From assembly GCA_002841355.1 (NCBI GenBank), contig PHFB01000008.1, positions 1-64,000 of the forward strand: a stretch of DNA of 64,000 nucleotides, given 5' to 3'. Position numbers and translations under genes: made by a program. Below, piece by piece: positions 33,388 through 44,433 of this stretch (position 1 is its first letter; each line of letters begins with the position of its first letter). Under the pieces are notes generated by a model. That model saw only the letters and a list, made by a program, of their open reading frames with translations, was not told where the DNA came from and searched no databases. The stretch is from Actinobacteria bacterium HGW-Actinobacteria-1 (lineage in GTDB: Bacteria; Actinomycetota; Coriobacteriia; Anaerosomatales; Anaerosomataceae).

Positions 33388-33985
33388 CGGCTTCTGCCGG
33401 TCGTCTGTTCTCTGTGCCACCCGACCTCACGAGACGCCGCTTAGCGTTGCATGACAGCCATTCAGCGGAGATTAGCGACCGCTGAGCGACAAATGCGACA
33501 TTTTCAAGATTAGCTCTTGCGCGGTCGAATCCAGTGCCGTATCGTCGTTCTTGTCCCGAGAGGTCGGATCGGGCGAACCGCGAAAGGTAGCGTACCAGTA
33601 GCTGCCGGCGGGGTACCTGAAGGAGAGGCTCAGCGCAAGCAGTGCCCGCTCGGATGGTGGCTCCAAAGGTGTGAAATGGGAAGCTGCGGATTAGTGGAAC
33701 TCGCCGGACGAGGTTTCTCGGGACACCTCTTTGTCTGGTGCTGGGCCAGGTCTTCGGATCTGGCCCTTTCTCTTGTCCCGATCGAGGTTAGTCAGGCAGG
33801 CACAGCACGTATCAGGTTTCATCAGGCTTCACAGAACCCAGTGCATTTCGAGCGGCGACGGGGAATAATACAAACCAATCGTGAATGTCTAACGAAGTCT
33901 GTCGGCAAATGGTTGCGCCGTCAGCCCCCGGAGGCGACGCAGAAGGTAGTTTGTGAATGCGTTCGCAAGGGGGTGACCTGTCCTC
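33388..33985 (+). other. 600-bp stretch without a credible gene; candidate structured RNA
   Basis: No reading frame here shows convincing coding character; the frames present lack a ribosome site and family resemblance. The stretch holds a TCAGCGG/CCGCTGA inverted repeat (about 33462-33485), a region with short complementary segments (about 33585-33740) and a strong terminator (33743-33774). About 210 further bases with an AT-rich TAATAC element near 33866 lead up to the next gene. A small RNA or an unfamiliar leader ending at the terminator would explain the layout. I could not match it to a known riboswitch class, RNase P, 6S, SRP or tmRNA. Confidence 0.5.
33743..33774 (+). terminator. Intrinsic terminator inside the non-coding stretch
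   Basis: GGGCCAGG and TCTGGCCC form an 8-bp stem (one G-T pair) around the loop TCTTCGGA, followed by TTTCTCTT. It lies 355 bases after the last gene and 212 before the next, so it probably ends a non-coding transcript. Confidence 0.75.
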
Positions 33986-34870
33986 ATGGATTCGACTATC
34001 GAAGAGTCCTCGGCGAAGGTCCGATTCAATCTCTGGAGTGCGCTGATCGTCTGCGCCGCGCTTCTCTCGGTCACGCTGCTCATTTCCTTCACGGGCGATG
34101 CAAGTACCTTCTGGCCGCTGTACATCATCCCTATCATTCTCGGCGCCGTGCTGTTCAACATCGTGGGAGCGCTGCTTGCTGCAGCGGGGTGTATCGCAGC
34201 GATAGGAATGGTAGCTCCGACTGGCACGTTCACGGGTTCGACCGGTGCGCAGTTGGCTCTGGGCCTTGGCGCATTCGCACTCTGCGGCATCTTCGTGGGT
34301 TTCAGAACGGCGCGATCGATCAAGCATGAGCACGCCCTTGCAAAGGCGTCGTACCGCGACGAGCAGACCGGTTTGTACAAGCCTGAGTACTTCCGCCAGC
34401 GCCTGATCGAGGAGATTCGCCGTGCGACTCGCCACGATGTCGAGGTCGGCCTGCTCGTAGTACGCGTCGATGGGCTTGCCACATTCCGGAACACATTCGG
34501 CGCGTACAAGACTGGTCTGCTAATGGAGCACCTCGCCGACATCCTGCGCATCACGGTTCGTGACACGGACATCGTGGGCCGGTACGGATCGGAATCCTTC
34601 GGTGTCCTACTCCCGTTCGCAAGCCCTGCCGAGGCGATGCTTGTCTCCGATCGCGTGCGTAGTGCCGCATGTGAGGCTGAGTTCGAAGGTGACGTGCTTC
34701 AGCCGTCGACGCACTGCCCGGTGAGTGTGGCGTCGGTGTCGTTCCCGGCGGAGGCGTCATCACTCGAGTCGGTAGTCGCCCTCGTCGCGGATCGTCTCGT
34801 CGACACGGCTCCCGATCATGAGTTCCTCAGTCGCAAGTCCGGGCTTCGGCTTGGAGAGGCGCACTCGTGA
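33986..34870 (+). CDS. Membrane protein with degenerate GGDEF domain, first gene of the antiporter operon
   Basis: This 294-residue protein has three to four membrane helices (about 15-35, 42-75 and 87-106) followed by a cytoplasmic GGDEF-fold domain (about 120-285). The active-site motif is changed to GSESF (201-205), so cyclase activity is unlikely. The product-binding I-site RDTD (192-195) is kept at the correct six-residue distance, as in c-di-GMP receptors derived from cyclases. Its TGA overlaps the GTG of mrpE by four bases. This ties it tightly to the Na+/H+ antiporter operon, which it may regulate in response to c-di-GMP (inference). ATG 33986 follows AGGGGGTG at ten bases. Confidence 0.88.
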   Translation: MDSTIEESSAKVRFNLWSALIVCAALLSVTLLISFTGDASTFWPLYIIPIILGAVLFNIVGALLAAAGCIAAIGMVAPTGTFTGSTGAQLALGLGAFALCGIFVGFRTARSIKHEHALAKASYRDEQTGLYKPEYFRQRLIEEIRRATRHDVEVGLLVVRVDGLATFRNTFGAYKTGLLMEHLADILRITVRDTDIVGRYGSESFGVLLPFASPAEAMLVSDRVRSAACEAEFEGDVLQPSTHCPVSVASVSFPAEASSLESVVALVADRLVDTAPDHEFLSRKSGLRLGEAHS

Positions 34871-35343
34871 AGACCCTTCGGGCCGCCGTGCCGCTGATGC
34901 TCTTCTGGCTCGTGCTGACGGCATCAGTGCGGATAGCCGACGTTGTGATGGGTGCCATTCTGTCGTTGCTGCTCGGCTGGTGGGCGGCGAACACGCTCTG
35001 GCGCGATACGGAGACGCCCACGCTCTCAGTGAGGCAGACGTGGCGGTTCTGCCTGTATATCCCATGGCTGATCAAGGAGATCGTGGTCGCGGCTGTAGGC
35101 GTGGCCGAGAAGGTGCTGGATCCGGCGATGCCGGTCGATCCGTGTGTGATCGTCCACCGCAGCCCGCTCACGCGGTCCGTGTCACGCGTGGCATTCGCCA
35201 ACTCGATAACGCTGACGCCGGGTACCCTTACGGTCGACCTCGAAGACGGCACGTTCACGGTCCATTGTCTTGCGCCTGATTTCGCGGCTGGCATCGAGAA
35301 CGGTGACATGGAACGGCGGATCCATCGGGTTTTCGAGGAGTAG
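34867..35343 (+). CDS. mrpE: Mrp/Mnh cation antiporter subunit E
   Basis: This 158-residue MnhE-type subunit of a multi-subunit Na+/H+ antiporter has two or three N-terminal membrane helices (about 1-45 and 57-80). A cytoplasmic domain follows with the family pattern SVSRVAFANSITLTPGTLTVD (about 98-118) and a C-terminal MERRIHRVFEE. It starts with GTG overlapping the degenerate-GGDEF gene by four bases. mrpF follows after three bases. The subunit forms part of the membrane arm needed for assembly and has no transport channel of its own. Confidence 0.93.
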   Translation: MKTLRAAVPLMLFWLVLTASVRIADVVMGAILSLLLGWWAANTLWRDTETPTLSVRQTWRFCLYIPWLIKEIVVAAVGVAEKVLDPAMPVDPCVIVHRSPLTRSVSRVAFANSITLTPGTLTVDLEDGTFTVHCLAPDFAAGIENGDMERRIHRVFEE

Positions 35344-35346
35344 GCG

Positions 35347-35622
35347 ATGCGCGCATTCTTCTGGGGGCTTGGCATCTTCATGTTGGCCAACGCGTTTCTG
35401 TGCCTGCTGCGCGCGTATCTCGGCCCAACAGTTGCCGACAGGATCCTGGCGGTGAACATCGTCGGCACGAAGACGCTTGTCGTGCTTGTGCTGCTGTCGT
35501 ACATCTTCGGCCGCAGCCTCTACCTGGACGTGGCGCTCGTATACGGACTCCTCAACTTCCTGGTGACGATCGTCGCTGCGCGTTTCATGGAAACCGGTCG
35601 CTTGAGGGGTGAGCTCACGTGA
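35347..35622 (+). CDS. mrpF: Mrp/Mnh cation antiporter subunit F
   Basis: This 91-residue protein has three membrane helices and the MnhF signature RAYLGPTVADRILAVNIVGTK (residues about 21-41), a conserved loop between helices 1 and 2, and DVALVYGLLNFL in the last helix. It is a structural subunit of the Mrp complex. The ATG lies three bases after mrpE and its stop overlaps the GTG of mrpG by four bases. Confidence 0.94.
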   Translation: MRAFFWGLGIFMLANAFLCLLRAYLGPTVADRILAVNIVGTKTLVVLVLLSYIFGRSLYLDVALVYGLLNFLVTIVAARFMETGRLRGELT

Positions 35623-35960
35623 GCACGCTCGATGCCATCCTCAACACCGTTGCGGCACTTCTGTGCATCGTTGGCGCCTTCTTCTTCTTCGTGGGCACCG
35701 TAGGCGTTCTGCGCCTGCCGGACTTCTACTCCCGCACACATGCGGCGACCAAGTGCGACACCGTGGGAGCTGGTTCGGTACTGCTGGGTCTGGCGCTCCT
35801 ACAGGGGTTCGATCCTGCCACGCTGAAGCTCCTGCTCCTTGCCGTGCTCGTTCTGATCTCCAGTCCAACAGCAGGTCATGCGCTTGCGAGGGCGGTCTTC
35901 CGCGGAGGGCTGGAGCCGTGGACCCGTCCCGGGCACCGGACGGGAGGGGGAGTCTCATGA
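35619..35960 (+). CDS. mrpG: Mrp/Mnh cation antiporter subunit G
   Basis: This 113-residue protein has three membrane helices and the MnhG signature GTVGVLRLPDFYSRTHAATK (about 27-46) plus SSPTAGHALARAVF (about 80-93). It is a structural subunit of the antiporter. The GTG start overlaps mrpF by four bases and the stop overlaps the next ATG by four bases, as between most genes of this operon. Confidence 0.94.
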   Translation: MSTLDAILNTVAALLCIVGAFFFFVGTVGVLRLPDFYSRTHAATKCDTVGAGSVLLGLALLQGFDPATLKLLLLAVLVLISSPTAGHALARAVFRGGLEPWTRPGHRTGGGVS

Positions 35961-36199
35961 GCCAGGCGTTCGACCTGCTGCTTGTCGGGCTGCTCATCGC
36001 GTGTGCCATCGCGGTCATCCGCACGAAGGATCTGCTCGGCGCGACGATCATCTTCTCGGCATACAGCCTGGTCATGTGCTTGATATGGCTGCACCGCGGC
36101 GCCCCGGACGTTGCCATGACCGAAGCGGCGGTCGGCGCTGGCGTCACGACGGTGCTCTTCCTAGTCACCATCGGGCGGACTGTGAGGCGCGAGAGATGA
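35957..36199 (+). CDS. MbhD/DUF4040-type antiporter subunit
   Basis: This 80-residue protein with three membrane helices corresponds to the DUF4040 (MbhD) segment that in classical Mrp complexes lies inside the C-terminal part of MrpA. Signature elements are IRTKDLLGATIIFSAYSLVM and APDVAMTEAAVGAGVTT (about 50-66), whose Glu is conserved in the family. As a separate gene it gives the operon an Mbh/Mbs-like archaeal arrangement. ATG overlaps mrpG by four bases; the stop overlaps the MnhB gene by four bases. Confidence 0.9.
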   Translation: MSQAFDLLLVGLLIACAIAVIRTKDLLGATIIFSAYSLVMCLIWLHRGAPDVAMTEAAVGAGVTTVLFLVTIGRTVRRER

Positions 36200-36921
36200 A
36201 ACGCGCCCTGACAGCCGCCTTCCTGGTGTTAGTGTCACTGCCGCTGCTGTACGCCATGTCGCAGCTTCCGCAGCACGGCAGCGCAACATCTCCGGCGTAC
36301 ACCCACATCGCGCCACGCTATCTCGAGAGGGGTCCCGAGGAAGCGGGTGCCGAGAACGTGGTGACCGACGTGATCCTGAACTACCGCGGCTTCGACACCA
36401 ACGGTGAAGTCACGGTCATCTTCACGTCGCTCGCCGCGGTGTTTGCAGTGCTCCTGGCGGGCCGCGAGGGCGACGAACGGTCCGCCAGCGAGCCAAGGGC
36501 ACGCACTACGCCGGAAGTGAGTCCGGTAGCATCCTTCGTCGTAAGGCTGCTCTCGCCGTTCGTGGCCATCTTCGCCGTTTACGTTGTCATGAACGGTCAC
36601 ATCTCCCCGGGCGGTGGATTCCAGGGAGGCACGGTGTTCGGCGCACTGCTGATCCTGGCGACGGTCGTGCTCGGCAAGGCGACTGCGGAGAAGCTCCAGC
36701 CGGCGCGCATTCGCGGGCTGCTGCAGGCGGCAGCTCCGCTGACATTCATCGCTGTGGGAGTTGCTGGACTCATCATGTTCGGTGACTACCTGGCGTTTCC
36801 GAAGGCCGCCGCACTCGCGTGGGTGCGTACCCTCTGGCTGATCGTCATCGAGATCGGGATCGGCGTCGGTGGTGCGTCGATCATCTCGGCGATCTTCTGG
36901 CAGATGGGGGGCGACCGATGA
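36196..36921 (+). CDS. mrpB: MbhE-MnhB fusion-type antiporter subunit B
   Basis: This 241-residue protein has an N-terminal MbhE-like part (about 1-95; VTDVILNYRGFDTNGEVTVIF), which classical Mrp systems carry at the end of MrpA. The MnhB domain follows (about 105-241), with the family loop NGHISPGGGFQGGTV (about 134-148) and four membrane helices. A charged cytoplasmic linker (about 92-112) joins the two. It overlaps both neighbours by four bases. The subunit is structural and contributes to the ion path between antiporter modules. Confidence 0.92.
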   Translation: MKRALTAAFLVLVSLPLLYAMSQLPQHGSATSPAYTHIAPRYLERGPEEAGAENVVTDVILNYRGFDTNGEVTVIFTSLAAVFAVLLAGREGDERSASEPRARTTPEVSPVASFVVRLLSPFVAIFAVYVVMNGHISPGGGFQGGTVFGALLILATVVLGKATAEKLQPARIRGLLQAAAPLTFIAVGVAGLIMFGDYLAFPKAAALAWVRTLWLIVIEIGIGVGGASIISAIFWQMGGDR

Positions 36922-37271
36922 TCGTCCACCTGTGGCAGAACATCGACTACGTCGCCTCGGTCGTGTTGTTCTGCATCGGGCTCTACTGCGTGATCACCAA
37001 GAACAACCTCATCAAGAAGTTCATCGGACTCAACATCATGGAGACGTCGGTGTTCGCGTTCATCGTCGCACTCGGCGTGGTCGATGGCGGGGACGCCCCG
37101 ATCATGGGCGCCGGAGCGCGGGCGCCATTCACCAACCCGATTCCTCAAGCGTTGATTCTCACCGGCATCGTAGTCGCGGTCAGCACGACCGCGCTCGCCC
37201 TCAGTCTCGTTATCCGCATCTATCAGCATTGCGGCACCATCGAAGCCGACGAGCTGAGGGAGATGGAATGA
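36918..37271 (+). CDS. mrpC: Mrp/Mnh cation antiporter subunit C (NuoK-like)
   Basis: This 117-residue protein with three membrane helices is homologous to NuoK of complex I. Signature elements are IGLYCVITKNNLIKKFIGLNIM (about 21-42, including the conserved helix-2 region) and PIPQALILTGIVVAVSTTAL (about 75-94), the typical MnhC helix 3. The ATG overlaps mrpB by four bases; mrpD follows after one base. Confidence 0.94.
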   Translation: MIVHLWQNIDYVASVVLFCIGLYCVITKNNLIKKFIGLNIMETSVFAFIVALGVVDGGDAPIMGAGARAPFTNPIPQALILTGIVVAVSTTALALSLVIRIYQHCGTIEADELREME

Positions 37272-37272
37272 G

Positions 37273-38757
37273 ATGACGCCATCGTCGCTGCTCGTGGGCA
37301 TCATCGTCGTGCCGCTCGCGGGCGCTGTCCTCACACCCGTCATCGGCGGCAAGGCCGGCAAACATGCCTGGACCTGGGCGACCACCGTGATGGTCGCCAC
37401 GTCGGTGATCGCTGCCGCCCTCGTCAACCAGGTTGCGCGGACCGGCCCGTTCTCGGCTTACCTTGGCGGGTGGGAGCGACCGTATGGTATCGAGCTCCGG
37501 TTCGACGAGTTCAGCGCGTCTGTCGCGGTGATCTGCCTGCTCGGCCTCCTGGCGATCGTGTTCTCGCAGAAATACGCCGCCAAGGAGCTACCGCCGGCGC
37601 GCCTTGGCACGTACTACACGCTGCTCCTCCTGAATCTCACCGGCATGCTCGGCTTCGTCGTGACGGGCGACCTGTTCAACCTGTTCGTGTTCATGGAGAT
37701 CCTCTCGCTCTCCGGGTACGCGCTCGTAGCGATCAGCGGGGAGCGCACAGCCGAGATGGCCGCGTTCAAGTACCTGGTGATGGGCGCCGTTTCCTCGCTG
37801 CTCGTTCTGTTCGCAATCGGCCTCCTCTATGCGCTCACTGGCAGTCTGAACATGGCCGATATCAGCGACCGCCTCACCGGATCAGCCGAGGTGCCCGCGA
37901 TGCTGGCCCTCGCGCTGCTCACCACCGGCTTCATGGTGAAGGCGGCGCTCTTCCCGCTGCATGTGTGGCTTCCCGATGCGCATGCCATCGCGCCCAGCCC
38001 GGTGAGCGCGATCCTCTCAGGACTCGTGGTCAAGACGGGGCTCCTCGGCATGATCAGGGTGTATCAGATCTACTACGGCGCGAAGGTGCTCGACCTGAGC
38101 TCGCTCAACACGGTTCTGGTCTGGCTTGGCGCGATCTCGATCGTGATGGGGGCGTTCTTCGCGATCTTCCAGGAAGACATCAAGATGATGCTGGCGTACT
38201 CGACGATTTCGAATATCGGCTACATCGTCATGGGCCTCGGACTTGCGTCGCAGTACGGCATCATCGGCGCGACGGTGCACATCTTCAACCACGCGCTCAT
38301 CAAAGCCACGCTCTTCCTGGGCGCGGGAGCGCTGATCTACCAAACGGGGTACCGCAATCTCAGCGACTTGCGCGGTGTCGGCCGATCGATGCCGTTCACG
38401 ACTGCGGCCATCTCGGTGGGCGCGATCTCGATCGTGGGGATGCCGCCGACAGCCGGATTCCTCTGCAAATGGTACATCGCGCTCGGCGCGGTCCAGGCGG
38501 GGCATCCGGTGTTCGGCGTGGCGCTTGTGTTCGGGGCGTTGTTCATCTTCGTCTACTACATTCGGATGGTTAACTCGTTCTACTTCCAGGCGCCGATCCA
38601 CCCGGAGATCCTCGAGGTGAAGGAAGCTCCGCTCACTATGCTGGCGCCCGTGCTGATCCTCGCGGCGCTCTGCCTCGCGATGGGGTTGCTCGGCCGTATC
38701 CCGCTGAGCTTCATCGAGCCCGCGGTGACCAGACTGCTCGGGACGCTGGGGGGCTGA
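37273..38757 (+). CDS. mrpD: Antiporter-like subunit 1 (MrpD/NuoN family)
   Basis: This 494-residue proton-translocating subunit has about 14 membrane helices. The key charged residues of the antiporter family are present: Glu in FMEILSLSGYAL (helix 5), Lys in FMVKAALFPLHVWLPDAH (helix 7), Lys in SGLVVKTGLLG (helix 8) and Lys in NHALIKATLFLGAG (helix 12). It resembles classical MrpD. It is the first of four consecutive subunits of this family in the operon. ATG 37273 lies one base after mrpC. Confidence 0.94.
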   Translation: MTPSSLLVGIIVVPLAGAVLTPVIGGKAGKHAWTWATTVMVATSVIAAALVNQVARTGPFSAYLGGWERPYGIELRFDEFSASVAVICLLGLLAIVFSQKYAAKELPPARLGTYYTLLLLNLTGMLGFVVTGDLFNLFVFMEILSLSGYALVAISGERTAEMAAFKYLVMGAVSSLLVLFAIGLLYALTGSLNMADISDRLTGSAEVPAMLALALLTTGFMVKAALFPLHVWLPDAHAIAPSPVSAILSGLVVKTGLLGMIRVYQIYYGAKVLDLSSLNTVLVWLGAISIVMGAFFAIFQEDIKMMLAYSTISNIGYIVMGLGLASQYGIIGATVHIFNHALIKATLFLGAGALIYQTGYRNLSDLRGVGRSMPFTTAAISVGAISIVGMPPTAGFLCKWYIALGAVQAGHPVFGVALVFGALFIFVYYIRMVNSFYFQAPIHPEILEVKEAPLTMLAPVLILAALCLAMGLLGRIPLSFIEPAVTRLLGTLGG

Positions 38758-38758
38758 C

Positions 38759-40234
38759 ATGGAAGTCACCGATATCCGTCCGATCCTCGCACCGGCGATC
38801 TCGTTCGCCTGTACCGGCCTCGTGTTCCTCATGGGCCGGAGCACGTTCTGGCGTCGGTTCTGGAGCCTTGGGGCGGCTACCGCCAAGCTCGTGGTCGTCA
38901 TGTCCATGCTGCCGGGCACGCTCAAAGGAACCGTATACGTGTTCAAGCTTCTCGACTTCACGCCCGGCATCGGGCTCGGCTTCAGGGCTGATGCTCTCGG
39001 GATGTTCTTCGCGGTCGTGAGTTCGACGTTGTGGCTGATCACGACCATCTACGCCATTGGCTACATGAAGCCCGAGCACGCGAAGGTGCGCTTCTTCGGC
39101 TTCTTCGCGCTCTGCGTCTCCACCACGATCGGCATCGCCTTCGCCGAGAACCTGCTCACGCTCTTCTTGTTCTACGAGACCCTGACGATTTGCACCTACC
39201 CGCTCGTCATCCACGAAGAGACGCCCGAGGCCATGAAGGCGGGCCGCAAGTACCTGACGTACACCCTCATCGGCGGCGCCTTCGTCCTGCTCGGCTCGAT
39301 CGTCACGTATCAGATGGCGGGGACGCTCACATTGAGCAAGCCTGGCATCCTGTCGCTCTCATCGGGAGTGGGGCCGCTCACCTGGCTGTTCATCGCGCTC
39401 GTCGCGGGGTTCGGGGTGAAGGCCGCCATCATGCCCCTGCACGGCTGGCTGCCAAGCGCGATGGTCGCACCTACGCCGGTGAGTGCGCTTCTCCACGCTG
39501 TCGCCGTCGTGAAGGCGGGCGCGTTCGGGTTGCTTCGCGTCATCTACAACGTGTACGGCGTGGAGCTGCTCAAGAACCTCCCGGTCATCAACTGGCTCGC
39601 GTATCTCGCGGCATTCACGATCCTTGCCGGCTCGTTCATCGCCATCTACCAGGACAATTTCAAGCGACGGCTGGCGTACTCAACGGTGAGCCAGCTCTCG
39701 TACATCATCCTGGGGGCGGCACTCCTCACGCCGTACGGAGCGACGGCGGCCATCGCGCACATCGCGAACCAGGCCTTCGCGAAGATCACGATGTTCTTCG
39801 TCGCCGGTTCCATCCAGCGAACTACAGGCAAGACGCAGATTCACGAACTGGCCGGCATCGGCTACAGGATGCCGTTCACCATGGCCGCGTATACGGTCGC
39901 GGCCTTGAGCTTCATCGGCGTCCCGCTCTTCGCGGGGTTCGTGACCAAGTGGTATCTGTCGCTCGGCGCGCTGCAATCGGGACAGTGGTGGTTTGTCCTT
40001 GTGATGGTGGCGAGTTCACTCCTGAACGCCGCCTACTGGCTGCCGATCATCTATCTCGCATGGTTCAAGGCACCCCCCGGCACGCGACTCGAGCTCCACG
40101 AGGCAAGTCCGACGCTCCTGCTGCCGACCTTGCTGTGCGCCGTGTATGTGATCCTCCTCGGGCTGACGACCCAGGTTCCGGGGCTGCCGTTCTCGCTCGC
40201 GCAGGCGGCCGTCAAGTTCGTCTTCGGTATGTGA
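38759..40234 (+). CDS. Antiporter-like subunit 2 (NuoL/M, MrpA-N family)
   Basis: This 491-residue multispanning protein of the proton-antiporter family has helix-5 Glu in FYETLTICTYPL, followed by HEETPEAMKAG. It also has Lys in FGVKAAIMPLHGWLPSAM (helix 7), Lys in AVAVVKAGAFG (helix 8) and Lys in NQAFAKITMFF (helix 12). The HEETPEAM segment is shared with the next subunit, pointing to a local duplication. ATG 38759 comes one base after the previous stop. It should form one proton or sodium half-channel of the complex. Confidence 0.92.
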   Translation: MEVTDIRPILAPAISFACTGLVFLMGRSTFWRRFWSLGAATAKLVVVMSMLPGTLKGTVYVFKLLDFTPGIGLGFRADALGMFFAVVSSTLWLITTIYAIGYMKPEHAKVRFFGFFALCVSTTIGIAFAENLLTLFLFYETLTICTYPLVIHEETPEAMKAGRKYLTYTLIGGAFVLLGSIVTYQMAGTLTLSKPGILSLSSGVGPLTWLFIALVAGFGVKAAIMPLHGWLPSAMVAPTPVSALLHAVAVVKAGAFGLLRVIYNVYGVELLKNLPVINWLAYLAAFTILAGSFIAIYQDNFKRRLAYSTVSQLSYIILGAALLTPYGATAAIAHIANQAFAKITMFFVAGSIQRTTGKTQIHELAGIGYRMPFTMAAYTVAALSFIGVPLFAGFVTKWYLSLGALQSGQWWFVLVMVASSLLNAAYWLPIIYLAWFKAPPGTRLELHEASPTLLLPTLLCAVYVILLGLTTQVPGLPFSLAQAAVKFVFGM

Positions 40235-40245
40235 AGGGGTGACGT

Positions 40246-41751
40246 GTGGTGGAGACCCAGCTGGTGACATCGATCGTACCGCCGCTGGCGTTCGTGTTGC
40301 CGATTATCGGCGCCGCGGGCGTTGTACCGTTCACCGCTAACGCTCCGCGTCTACGCAAAGCGGCGCTTGCTGCGATCTGTGTGCTCGAGGTGATCGTCGC
40401 GGCGTCCTTCGTTCCCGGTGTGCTGTCCGGGTCCGAGTATCAGACGCACCTCGTGCAGTTGACGCCCCGTATCTGGATGTACCTGCATGTCGATGCCCTC
40501 GGTGCGCTCTTCGGCCTTACGGCGAGCGTCCTGTGGCTGATCGCGCTCGTGTACTCTTTCGGCTACATGGAAGGCGAGCACCGTTTGGGCAGGTACTACG
40601 CGTTCTTCATGCTTGCGCTCTCGTGGACGATGGGCGTCGCATATGCGGGCAACCTGCTCACCTTCCTCATCTTCTACGAGCTCTTCTCGCTGCTCACGTA
40701 CCCACTCATCGTGCATGAAGAGACACCCGAGGCGATGGCGGCGGGCACCAAGTACATCATCTACATCCTCATCGGCGGCAGCCTCGTGCTACTTGCCATC
40801 GTGTTCACGTTCTTCCTGGCCGGCGATCAGACTTTGGCGGCGCAGGGTGGGCTGCTCGCGCTGTCGATGGGCAAAGGCAAGCTCGTCGCGGTGTTCTGGT
40901 GCTTCGTAGCGGGCTTCGGCGTGAAGGCCGCACTCGTACCGCTCCACGGCTGGGTGCCGGACGCGCATCCAGCGGCACCGGCTCCCTTCTCGGCAGTGCT
41001 GTCGGGCGTGATGGTCGCGGCGGGCTCATTCGGCATCATGCGCGTCGTCTTCAACGTCTTCGGTGTGGCGTTGCTGCGCGAGCTCGACGTGATGCGCTGG
41101 CTCACGTACTTCGCGGCGTTCACGGTGGTCTTCGCTGCGCTGCTTGCCGTGAGTCAGGACAACCTCAAACGACGGCTTGCGTATTCAACGATCAGCCAGA
41201 TGGGATATGTCGCGCTCGGCATCGGGCTGCTTGGCGAAGAGGCTGCCACCGGCGCGATCGTGCACATCGCCAATCACGCGTTCATGAAAGGCGCGCTGTT
41301 CCTCTGCGCCGGCTTGCTGATCAAACGAGCGGGTATCCGCAATGTCAGCGACCTTAGCGGCATCGCGCAGAAGATGCCGGTGACAACGGCGGCGTTCGCG
41401 ATCGCAACGCTTGCCATGATCGGCACGCCACCGCTGTCGGGCTTCGTGAGCAAGTGGTTCCTCGGCCTTGGCATGCTCGATGTGGGGCAGCCGTGGTATC
41501 TCGCAGTGCTGCTCGGCGGGGCGCTCCTCGCGGCGGTGTACCTGCTGCCGATTGTCTACGCAGCGTACTTCCGACCGCCGAGCGCAGCGGTCATGGCGCT
41601 GCCGGAGCGGGTGGGCGGTGAGGCACCCGCCAGCATGCTGGTGCCGCTCATTGCCGCAGTTGTGCTCGTCATCGTGCTTGGCATCGCGTCGTCCGTGCCT
41701 GGCATGCCGCTGTCGCTGGCTCGGTTGGCTGCAGGTATCGCGTTCAAGTAG
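40246..41751 (+). CDS. Antiporter-like subunit 3 (NuoL-like, helix-8 lysine absent)
   Basis: This 501-residue multispanning protein is closest to the preceding subunit (shared HEETPEAM motif). Helix-5 Glu (FYELFSLLTYPL), helix-7 Lys (FGVKAALVPLHGWVPDAH) and helix-12 Lys (NHAFMKGALFL) are present. At the helix-8 position, where the other three subunits read VKTG, VKAG or IKAG, this one reads VAAG. That makes it NuoL-like and may change its ion path. The start is GTG 40246 (GTG 40249 also possible) after GAAGGGG. Confidence 0.91.
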   Translation: MVETQLVTSIVPPLAFVLPIIGAAGVVPFTANAPRLRKAALAAICVLEVIVAASFVPGVLSGSEYQTHLVQLTPRIWMYLHVDALGALFGLTASVLWLIALVYSFGYMEGEHRLGRYYAFFMLALSWTMGVAYAGNLLTFLIFYELFSLLTYPLIVHEETPEAMAAGTKYIIYILIGGSLVLLAIVFTFFLAGDQTLAAQGGLLALSMGKGKLVAVFWCFVAGFGVKAALVPLHGWVPDAHPAAPAPFSAVLSGVMVAAGSFGIMRVVFNVFGVALLRELDVMRWLTYFAAFTVVFAALLAVSQDNLKRRLAYSTISQMGYVALGIGLLGEEAATGAIVHIANHAFMKGALFLCAGLLIKRAGIRNVSDLSGIAQKMPVTTAAFAIATLAMIGTPPLSGFVSKWFLGLGMLDVGQPWYLAVLLGGALLAAVYLLPIVYAAYFRPPSAAVMALPERVGGEAPASMLVPLIAAVVLVIVLGIASSVPGMPLSLARLAAGIAFK

Positions 41752-41766
41752 GGGGAGGGGGCGGGC

Positions 41767-44433
41767 ATGGAGGGCACCGAGGTCGCAACTGCGGTCGAGG
41801 CCGTCACCACGGCGTACAGCGCGCTACCGGGTCTGCTCGTGGCGGTGCCGCTCCTCTCGGCGCTGCTGGTGCGACCCCTTGGCAAGCGTTGGCCGAGTGC
41901 GCGAAACGCGCTGATGGTGGGGACGACCGCGGCGACGCTCTTGGGCGCGGTCGCGATGATCGGCCCCGTGAGCGAGGCGCACCGCATCGGGTGCGAGATC
42001 CCGGCGATGCTGGGTACGCTCACGTTCACCGTCGACCCATTCGGCCTGCTCTTCGCGCTGTTCACGACGTTCGTCTGGTTCTGCTCCACGCTCTACTCGC
42101 TCGACTACCTCAAGCATGAGCACGCACACGACCGCTATCACACCACGAGCCTCGTCGTTCTCGCAGCGAACCTGGGCGTCGTGTTGGCTGGTGACCTGGT
42201 CACGCTCTATCTGTTCTTCGAGGCGCTCGGGTTGGTGGCGTTCCTGCTCGTCATCCATACCGAGACCGAGGACGCGAAACGGGCATCGCTCAAGTACCTC
42301 TGGATGACGGTGATCGGCGGGTTCATGCTCGTCGGCGGCATCTTCCTGACGTTCGCGATCGGCGGCGACGGGACGCTTGCACCGATCGTTGCCCGCGAGG
42401 GGACCGAGACGCTGCGCTGGGTGGCGTCCATACTGCTTGTGCTTGGCTTCGGTGTGAAGGCCGGCATGCTGCCCGTTCACGTGTGGCTGCCCGATGCGCA
42501 TCCGGTCGCTCCGAGTCCGGCGAGCGCGCTCCTCTCGGGCGTGATGATCAAGGCCGGCGCGTATGGCATCTTCCGGACCGTGCTCGTGCTCATGCGCCCA
42601 GAAGTGACCGAGCACTTCGATGAGGCGGCGTGGCACTTCACCAGCCAGCTCGGTCTAGTCGTGCTGTGGATCGGCATGGCGACGATGCTCATCGGAGTCA
42701 TGCTCGCCCTCGGGCAGCACAACGCCAAACGGATGCTCGCTTACCACAGTGTGAGCCAGATGGGGTTCATCCTGGCCGGACTTGGAGCTGCGGGGTACCT
42801 GGGCGTGCACGGCGCGATGGGCGTGGCCGGCGGACTCTTCCACGTGGTCAACCATGCGCTCTTCAAGAGCTGTCTCTTCCTCGGCGTGGGCGCGGTGTTC
42901 TTCCGCACGGGGGAGCTCGACATGTACAAGCTCGGCGGCCTGTGGAAGAAGATGCCGCTGACATTCCTGTTCACGCTAATAGCTGCGGCAGGGATCACGG
43001 GTGTGCCGCTGTTCAACGGGTTCGTCAGCAAATGCCTCATCCACCACGCGCTCGTTGAAGCCGCCGAGTACCACGAACTCGCGTCGCTCGCGTTCGCCGA
43101 GAAGATCTTCATCGTGACGTGTGGCGGTACGGCCTGTTCGTTCATCAAGCTCATCGGTTTCGTGTTCCTTGGCAAGCCGAAACAGGAGTATGGCCCGGAG
43201 GTCAAAGACGCTCCGCCGAGGATGCTCACGGCTATGGGGTTCCTCTCGGCTGCGATCATCACCCTTGGCGTCGCGCCGCAGCTGCTGATCAAGGGCATCT
43301 TCGAGCCGGGATCCGAACTCTGGGGCATTCATCCGGCGATTCTCGATGAGTACCTCGAGAAGCTGTTCTTGAGTCCGGCCGACCTCATGAGCGTGGCGCT
43401 CGCATTCGCGATCGGCGCCACCATCTTCGTCGTGGGTATGCGCTTCGGCCTCTTCCACCTCAAAGCCCCGAAGTGGTTCGGTGTCGACTACTGGTACGGG
43501 AAGGCTGCGCTTGGTCTGATCGCGTTCTGCGGGTTCCTCGGCGCGTGGTACGACCTCGCCAGGGGATTCGTCGGCGACGGGCTTCGCTGGTCGATGGCTC
43601 GATACCGCAGCGAATGGAACCGCATCGAGCGCGCGAGACGTCGTCTCGTCATGACGCTCGCGACCGGTGCGCCCGGGCCGAGGGATCAGCATTTCGTGCA
43701 GGGCGCGTACGTCGTGCTCGAACGGGAGCGCCAGGCGACCGTGCGCAGGGCCGTGACCGACGCCATGACGGTCGTGCGCGAGCGTCCCGAGCATGGCGAG
43801 GCGGCGTGCCGGGCATACGTGGACGCCGTACGCGACGTCGCGACGTACATGGCCGGCCGGCTGTTCCACGAGCGGATGGGGGTCGTCTCGGATCTCGTGC
43901 GTTACGGCATGGCCGAGGAGGTCCGGCACGGCTTCGACGGTGTCGTTCGCGATGTCGTGGCTACCCGCGACAGCGTCTCGGCAACAGCGCTTGCGGTCGC
44001 CGATCGGCGGATGGCAGGCGAGAGCGTCACGCGGGAGATCTCGGCCGCTGTCAATCGGATACTGAGCGACGAGCGCTTCGACTCCCGGCTTGCAGCCCTT
44101 GTGGTGATTCCCAACCCGACCGGTCGTGCGGCAGACACCGCCGAGGCGATCCGTCAGGCGCTGCCCGATCTTGCGGCAATCCGCGCATATCGGACCGAGG
44201 GCCTCACCCGGCTGGAGAAGGCGGCGCGCTGGATGAGCGATATCACGCGGCTTGCAGTCGAGGCGATCACGCAAGAGCGCAGCAGCTGGCTCTTTGCGGA
44301 TCATTTCGGCGAGGAGAGCGTTGTGGGCACCCGCCTCGCCATCCAGCGCTATGCACGGGATATGAGTTTCAATGTAGCCGTGATCGTGCTCGTCGCACTT
44401 GCCTTCCTGCTTGCCCTGGGCGTGCGCGCGTAG
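41767..44433 (+). CDS. Antiporter-like subunit 4 with long soluble C-terminal extension
   Basis: In this 888-residue protein, residues 1 to about 600 form a NuoL/MrpA-type antiporter with helix-5 Glu (FFEALGLVAFLL), helix-7 Lys (FGVKAGMLPVHVWLPDAH), helix-8 Lys (MIKAGAYG) and helix-12 Lys (NHALFKSCLFL). Residues about 605-865 form an Arg- and Ala-rich, mostly helical soluble region that I cannot assign, and the protein ends in one more membrane helix (about 868-886). MrpA is also long, but its extra C-terminal part is membrane-bound and corresponds to MbhD/E, which are separate genes here. The extension is therefore something else, perhaps a lateral helix or regulatory arm. It is the last gene of the operon; ATG follows AGGGGGAGG. 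Confidence 0.92.
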   Translation: MEGTEVATAVEAVTTAYSALPGLLVAVPLLSALLVRPLGKRWPSARNALMVGTTAATLLGAVAMIGPVSEAHRIGCEIPAMLGTLTFTVDPFGLLFALFTTFVWFCSTLYSLDYLKHEHAHDRYHTTSLVVLAANLGVVLAGDLVTLYLFFEALGLVAFLLVIHTETEDAKRASLKYLWMTVIGGFMLVGGIFLTFAIGGDGTLAPIVAREGTETLRWVASILLVLGFGVKAGMLPVHVWLPDAHPVAPSPASALLSGVMIKAGAYGIFRTVLVLMRPEVTEHFDEAAWHFTSQLGLVVLWIGMATMLIGVMLALGQHNAKRMLAYHSVSQMGFILAGLGAAGYLGVHGAMGVAGGLFHVVNHALFKSCLFLGVGAVFFRTGELDMYKLGGLWKKMPLTFLFTLIAAAGITGVPLFNGFVSKCLIHHALVEAAEYHELASLAFAEKIFIVTCGGTACSFIKLIGFVFLGKPKQEYGPEVKDAPPRMLTAMGFLSAAIITLGVAPQLLIKGIFEPGSELWGIHPAILDEYLEKLFLSPADLMSVALAFAIGATIFVVGMRFGLFHLKAPKWFGVDYWYGKAALGLIAFCGFLGAWYDLARGFVGDGLRWSMARYRSEWNRIERARRRLVMTLATGAPGPRDQHFVQGAYVVLERERQATVRRAVTDAMTVVRERPEHGEAACRAYVDAVRDVATYMAGRLFHERMGVVSDLVRYGMAEEVRHGFDGVVRDVVATRDSVSATALAVADRRMAGESVTREISAAVNRILSDERFDSRLAALVVIPNPTGRAADTAEAIRQALPDLAAIRAYRTEGLTRLEKAARWMSDITRLAVEAITQERSSWLFADHFGEESVVGTRLAIQRYARDMSFNVAVIVLVALAFLLALGVRA

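What the first reader, a model, noticed from the sequence alone, without database searches (positions are those of the whole stretch)
33986..44433. Degenerate-GGDEF membrane protein translationally coupled to an Mrp-type antiporter operon
The first protein has GSESF in place of GGDEF but keeps the c-di-GMP I-site RDTD at the right distance (192-195 versus 201-205). Its stop overlaps the mrpE start by four bases. This is the signature of a cyclase turned into a c-di-GMP receptor. The window also encodes two intact GGDEF enzymes that could supply the signal. Direct second-messenger control of a Na+/H+ antiporter would be new to my knowledge.
Basis: partly seen in the sequence, partly recalled or inferred. 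Interest (0 to 1): 0.8.

Follow-up and report, generated by a model that had tools for sequence, protein, structure and literature searches.

The report
Dead-cyclase c-di-GMP receptor paired with antiporter
The first gene of this sodium/proton antiporter (Mrp) operon encodes a membrane protein that has lost every catalytic residue of a signal-making enzyme but has kept, across 30 species, the site that binds the signal molecule c-di-GMP, so this bacterial second messenger probably controls an ion antiporter directly, a link I found no report of.

Summary
The 294-aa protein (33986-34870) has a DUF4118-like membrane part and a GGDEF fold with GSESF. Its stop codon overlaps the mrpE start (GTGA). 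The order holds 30 orthologs (69 genomes searched), all directly before mrpE of one of two Mrp operon types; of 27 measured, 26 overlap by 4 nt and one by 1 nt. In all 30 the catalytic residues are gone (metal D327 0/30, N335 0/30, GG 0/30). The four c-di-GMP inhibitory-site (I-site) residues stay: R192 30/30, D195 30/30, R223 29/30, R146 29/30, ranking 3, 5, 11 and 12 of 265 sites for slowness. RxxD alone is weak evidence, since 84% of intact GGDEFs in related genomes carry it; all four residues occur in 26% of those and in 28/30 here. Other families of the phylum carry full-length relatives before mrpE, mostly with intact GGEEF, so the operon link probably predates the loss of catalysis. This looks like a cyclase turned receptor, working like PelD. 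c-di-GMP binding and control of antiport are inferred, not shown; no earlier report of a c-di-GMP receptor in an Mrp operon was found in the papers searched.

The parts
33986..34870 (+). Membrane protein with degenerate GGDEF domain (294 aa), proposed c-di-GMP receptor of the Mrp operon
   Evidence: ORF; PF00990 E=9.7e-17; 30 orthologs, all directly upstream of mrpE
34028..34309 (+). N-terminal membrane part, about residues 15-108, probably four helices, DUF4118-like (KdpD membrane domain)
   Evidence: PF13493 matches 19 of 26 family members, best E=5.6e-8 (below cut-off for the window copy); four helices in a low-confidence full-length model
34352..34780 (+). GGDEF-fold domain, residues 123-265
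   Evidence: AlphaFold2 domain model pLDDT 84.6, pTM 0.80; PleD/c-di-GMP structures Z about 20.6
34421..34423 (+). R146, equivalent of PleD R313 (I-site arginine given by the partner domain)
   Evidence: 29/30 orthologs, site rate rank 12 of 265
34559..34570 (+). I-site R192-D-T-D195 (PleD R359, D362)
   Evidence: 30/30 orthologs, site rate ranks 3 and 5 of 265
34586..34600 (+). Degenerate GGDEF motif GSESF, residues 201-205
   Evidence: no ortholog in the order keeps GG[DE]EF; metal D327 and N335 lost in 30/30
34652..34654 (+). R223, equivalent of PleD R390 (third I-site residue)
   Evidence: 29/30 orthologs, rank 11 of 265
34867..34870 (+). Four-base stop/start overlap GTGA with mrpE
   Evidence: 4-nt overlap in 26 of 27 orthologs, 1 nt in the other
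34867..35343 (+). mrpE
   Evidence: PF01899 E=8.7e-30
35347..35622 (+). mrpF
   Evidence: PF04066
35619..35960 (+). mrpG
   Evidence: PF03334
35957..36199 (+). MbhD-like subunit
   Evidence: PF13244 E=5.2e-23
36196..36921 (+). MbhE/MnhB-like subunit (mrpB)
   Evidence: PF04039 and PF20501
36915..37271 (+). mrpC
   Evidence: PF00420
37273..38757 (+). mrpD-type subunit 1
   Evidence: PF00361
38759..40234 (+). mrpD-type subunit 2
   Evidence: PF00361
40246..41751 (+). mrpD-type subunit 3
   Evidence: PF00361
41767..44433 (+). MrpA/D-type subunit with a long C-terminal extension without Pfam match
   Evidence: PF00361 matches residues 141-435 only

Best explanation
The first gene encodes a membrane-anchored c-di-GMP receptor made together with, and probably acting on, the Mrp cation/proton antiporter. 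It most likely descends from an Mrp-linked membrane diguanylate cyclase. In this order the active site decayed and the product-binding I-site stayed. Proposed working: c-di-GMP made by the cell's other GGDEF enzymes, probably as an intercalated dimer, binds R192, D195 and R223 of one GGDEF domain and R146 of a partner domain. That locks or re-orients the domain dimer, and the change is passed through the membrane part or the cytosolic face, most plausibly MrpE, to alter antiport or assembly of the complex. Shown here by sequence: the domain, loss of the active site, conservation of the I-site, the strict operon link and the stop/start overlap. Inferred: c-di-GMP binding, dimer cross-linking, contact with Mrp and the direction of the effect.
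For: (1) 30 orthologs among 69 genomes of the order, all directly 5' of mrpE-F-G; the gene upstream in the window was found only in the nearest relatives. (2) 26 of 27 stop/start overlaps are 4 nt, one is 1 nt. (3) The protein goes with one operon type: the second Mrp operon of these genomes, about 30-40% identical, has no homologue in the stretches read (tree). (4) Active-site residues are lost in 30/30 while I-site residues R359/D362/R390/R313 are kept at 30/30/29/29; the four rank 3, 5, 11, 12 of 265 for slowness and active-site columns are on average faster than the median. (5) In 93 intact GGDEFs of 15 related genomes R390 is 60%, R313 54% and all four 26%, against 28/30 here. (6) Those four residues make the I-site (PMC7288161); the equivalents of R359/D362/R390 are needed for c-di-GMP binding in PelD (PMC2170427; PMC7112168). 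(7) Relatives in other families of the phylum sit before mrpE, seven read in full, six with GGEEF; two further copies lie at the 3' end of another Mrp operon. (8) The own genome has about ten GGDEF and two EAL matches, and no PilZ match. (9) MrpE caps the Mrp complex, joins its dimer and exposes a cytosolic domain (PMC7419157).
Against: No binding or activity data. RxxD is common in intact GGDEFs (84%), so part of its conservation may be structural. One species (G057) has an operon of this type without the gene, so the antiporter does not strictly need it. The mrpE-F-G tree places the operons of the intact relatives inside the order's diversity, so the direction and timing of the loss are not settled by trees. 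The link is limited to this order and some other families of one phylum.
Confidence: 0.55

Rival explanations
1. It is a c-di-GMP receptor, but its output is not antiport: it stays with Mrp because it senses the membrane or ion state and uses c-di-GMP to gate a different partner, or it captures local c-di-GMP or pairs with an active cyclase.
For: Relatives in the same operon position have an intact GGEEF, so the ancestral link may have run from Mrp or ion state to c-di-GMP. The membrane part resembles that of KdpD (DUF4118), a potassium/turgor sensor kinase (own knowledge). GGDEF domains act as dimers.
Against: Retention and coupling in 30 orthologs after all catalysis is gone fits an output on the neighbouring complex better; no other partner gene was seen to be conserved.
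Confidence: 0.18
2. It is an assembly or structural accessory of the Mrp complex; R192, D195, R223 and R146 are kept for fold or protein contacts, and no nucleotide binds.
For: RxxD is frequent in GGDEF domains in general. Other invariant residues (E143, R149, the FEGD motif 233-236) have no known nucleotide role.
Against: R390 and R313 equivalents are not needed for the fold, since they vary in 40-46% of intact paralogs, yet are nearly invariant here; their joint retention with loss of the active site matches known receptors.
Confidence: 0.18
3. The domain is still an enzyme with an unusual motif.
For: Some enzymes with altered GGDEF motifs are active, such as VCA0965 with AGDEF (PMC3974145).
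Against: Metal D327, guanine N335 and the second G are absent in 30/30 orthologs and these columns drift freely.
Confidence: 0.02
4. Operon hitch-hiking without a functional tie.
For: One species keeps the operon without the gene.
Against: 30/30 adjacency in 6 families and 16 genera, adjacency in 11 genomes of 5 other families, and attachment of relatives to a second Mrp operon.
Confidence: 0.05

Closest known systems
PelD (Pseudomonas aeruginosa, Bacillus cereus), degenerate GGDEF c-di-GMP receptor
   Same: Membrane-anchored (own knowledge: four helices), degenerate GGDEF, c-di-GMP bound through RxxD plus a downstream arginine (R367, D370, R402; PMC2170427, PMC7112168), encoded in the operon of the complex it controls
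   Different: PelD controls Pel polysaccharide synthesis and has a GAF domain (own knowledge); this protein has none visible and belongs to an Mrp antiporter operon
PleD and DgcR, I-site-inhibited diguanylate cyclases
   Same: Same fold and, for PleD, the same four I-site residues
   Different: They are active enzymes; here all catalytic residues are lost
Ammonium transporter with a GGDEF domain in one chain (PDB 8qj3, 8qpf)
   Same: A GGDEF domain tied to a transport protein
   Different: A fused domain, so far as the chains show; here a separate gene, a dead domain and an Mrp antiporter. The paper was not found in the library
KdpD membrane domain (DUF4118)
   Same: The N-terminal membrane part is distantly similar
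   Different: No kinase domain
c-di-GMP and salt response in Halomonas (DgcY/HhmR, PMC12421958)
   Same: Links c-di-GMP with salt stress
   Different: An active cyclase without an I-site acting with a transcription regulator; no direct action on an antiporter

Membership tests
GGDEF domain (PF00990) | Profile match above curated cut-off and GGDEF fold | tested here: met
   61.6 bits against 23.8; domain model pLDDT 84.6, Z 17.8-21.5 against solved GGDEF domains
Active diguanylate cyclase | GG[DE]EF motif, metal Asp (PleD D327), guanine-binding N335 | tested here: not met
   GSESF, R160, R168 in the window; 0/30 orthologs keep any of D327, N335, GG
I-site c-di-GMP receptors of degenerate-GGDEF type (working like PelD) | RxxD five residues before the motif plus downstream Arg (PleD R390 / PelD R402) | tested here: met
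   R192, D195, R223; 30/30, 30/30, 29/30
I-site c-di-GMP receptors of degenerate-GGDEF type (working like PelD) | Binds c-di-GMP in vitro | not testable with these tools
   Needs purified protein
PelD family | pel operon context and match to the PelD sequence family | tested here: not met
   No pel genes at the locus; no PelD family among Pfam matches shown for 26 members. It works like PelD at most
Mrp (CPA3) antiporter operon | MrpE, F, G, B, C and D/A-type subunits together | tested here: met
   PF01899, PF04066, PF03334, PF04039, PF00420, PF00361 in a row, MbhD/MbhE-like genes as well
DUF4118 (KdpD) membrane domain | Profile match above cut-off | tested here: inconclusive
   E 0.0086 for the window copy, below cut-off; 19/26 members match, best 5.6e-8

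The most novel reading that the evidence does not exclude
A family of membrane GGDEF proteins has been tied to Mrp antiporters in one bacterial phylum, first as cyclases and then, in one order, as pure c-di-GMP receptors that act as a signal-gated accessory subunit of the antiporter, so that c-di-GMP directly sets Na+/H+ exchange.
Probability: 0.45. Interest if true: 0.85.

Novelty: new variant of a known kind. Interest (0 to 1): 0.68.

Why it matters
c-di-GMP is known mainly for biofilm, motility and virulence outputs. Direct control of an ion antiporter would place it in pH and sodium homeostasis, a role so far associated with c-di-AMP (own knowledge). The family also offers a natural series, with intact cyclase, an intermediate and a dead receptor at the same operon position, for studying how an enzyme becomes a receptor.

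Tried and rejected
RxxD conservation as sole argument: rejected after the control (84% in intact paralogs). A riboswitch or leader RNA controlling the operon: the structured element at 33539-33736 is an order-wide RNA, 1-3 copies per genome and mostly not next to Mrp, so not specific to it. Full-length structure model: too poor to use (pLDDT 54.8); only the domain model was searched. Orthologs from the genome search were not handed to the structure predictor because its stated rule does not list them. Searches of the paper library for c-di-GMP with Mrp antiporters, mrpE or GGDEF neighbourhoods: no report of a c-di-GMP receptor in an Mrp operon. Tree-based dating of the loss of catalysis: inconclusive.

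Full report
Observation. The ORF at 33986-34870 is a 294-aa protein with an N-terminal membrane part and a GGDEF-fold domain (PF00990 E=9.7e-17, residues 123-265), followed with a 4-nt GTGA overlap by mrpE and a full set of Mrp genes. GSESF replaces GGDEF at 201-205, and RDTD sits at 192-195 with the spacing of PleD. The two other GGDEF proteins of the window have an intact motif.

Distribution. A search of relatives gave 27 full-length orthologs (window copy included) in 61 genomes, and a profile search of the order gave 30 in 69 genomes, in 6 families and 16 genera by the handles listed. No full-length homologue appeared elsewhere in the class (298 genomes sampled). All 30 lie directly upstream of mrpE-F-G. 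In the 27 measured, the stop overlaps the mrpE start by 4 nt in 26 and by 1 nt in one. The gene upstream in the window was found only in the nearest relatives, so the tie is to Mrp.

Two Mrp operon types. A search for MnhE found matches in 37 of 61 genomes. Operons of a second type, about 30-40% identical, lack the GGDEF gene in the stretches read and separate in a tree of MrpE-F-G. One genome, G057, has an operon of the first type without the gene, nested in that clade, which looks like a loss. A second G057 operon without the gene branches outside.

Residues. Mapped on PleD, the catalytic residues are gone in all 30: D327 0, N335 0, GG 0, full motif 0. The four residues that form the I-site according to a review (R359, D362, R390, and R313 of the partner domain; PMC7288161) are kept at 30, 30, 29 and 29 of 30; 28 keep all four. 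In a maximum-likelihood rate estimate over 265 sites they rank 3, 5, 11 and 12 from the slowest; none of 20,000 random sets of four domain sites was as slow, while active-site columns average above the median. Median pairwise identity of the domains is 43%, so this is not mere closeness.

Control. In 110 other GGDEF domains from 15 of the genomes, 93 have a near-canonical motif. Of these 84% have RxxD, 60% R390, 54% R313 and 26% all four. RxxD alone is therefore weak evidence; the full I-site in proteins without an active site is strong. Related sequences are not independent, so the Fisher values should not be read as probabilities.

Origin. In the phylum (396 genomes sampled) full-length relatives occur in other families. 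In 11 genomes of 5 families the best one lies next to mrpE by coordinates; in some of them a small DUF6812-type gene lies between. Seven were read in full. Six of the seven carry GGEEF with D327, N335 and RxxD, and one (L226) is degenerate (GGGQF) with the I-site complete. Two further copies lie at the 3' end of another Mrp operon, and others stand beside ROK kinase genes. The simplest history is an Mrp-linked cyclase that lost catalysis in this order and in the L226 lineage. The GGDEF tree fits this if rooted among intact forms; the operon tree does not settle it.

Fold. A domain model made from window and L031 sequences has pLDDT 84.6 and pTM 0.80. It aligns with solved GGDEF domains, among them c-di-GMP complexes of PleD at Z about 20.6. 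This shows fold, not binding. The membrane part resembles DUF4118 of KdpD, weakly in the window copy.

Mechanism. The nearest working model is PelD, in which R367, D370 and R402 are needed for c-di-GMP binding and function (PMC2170427; PMC7112168). MrpE caps the Mrp complex, takes part in dimer formation and exposes a ferredoxin-like domain to the cytoplasm (PMC7419157); it appears to be incorporated last and to matter for full activity, though it is dispensable in B. subtilis (PMC5703873). I infer that c-di-GMP binding changes the receptor dimer and through it Mrp. The own genome has about ten GGDEF and two EAL matches, and no PilZ match, so a signal is likely present and receptors are few. 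Binding, contact and effect are not shown.

Novelty. Searches of the paper library gave no report of c-di-GMP control of an Mrp antiporter or of a GGDEF protein in an mrp operon; the two Mrp papers searched do not mention c-di-GMP. Subscription papers are mostly outside this library. Degenerate-GGDEF receptors are a known kind; this is a new variant with a new probable target.

Noticed in passing
window 33539-33736 (+), terminator-like stem 33743-33766: A conserved structured RNA of about 190 nt (closing stem TTGTCCCGAGA...TCTCGGGACA) without an Rfam match, found in 56 of 61 genomes of the order in 1-3 copies, mostly away from Mrp; possibly a 6S-like RNA.
   Followed up: partly
L246 5969-6805 (own genome C1:302968-303804, +): A second fully degenerate membrane GGDEF protein (278 aa; RLVD and the R390 equivalent kept, motif GDGRF, metal and guanine residues lost), another candidate c-di-GMP receptor.
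   Followed up: partly
L227 2425-2682 and L230 4847-5212: In relatives of family f30 a small gene lies between the GGDEF gene and mrpE; the L227 copy is DUF6812.
   Followed up: no
L227-L245, PleD position 344: Intact relatives carry Asn in place of the guanine-contacting Asp (18 of 19), seen in 2 of 93 control GGDEFs; could affect nucleotide choice.
   Followed up: no
window about 43560-44433: The last Mrp gene has a C-terminal stretch (about residues 600-888) beyond the antiporter domain with no Pfam match.
   Followed up: no
window 34682-34693 (residues 233-236 of the protein): FEGD motif invariant in the order and also seen in intact relatives; function unknown.
   Followed up: no
L231 4485-5423: The relative in G511 is split by an in-frame TGA (sequencing error, pseudogene or recoding).
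   Followed up: no
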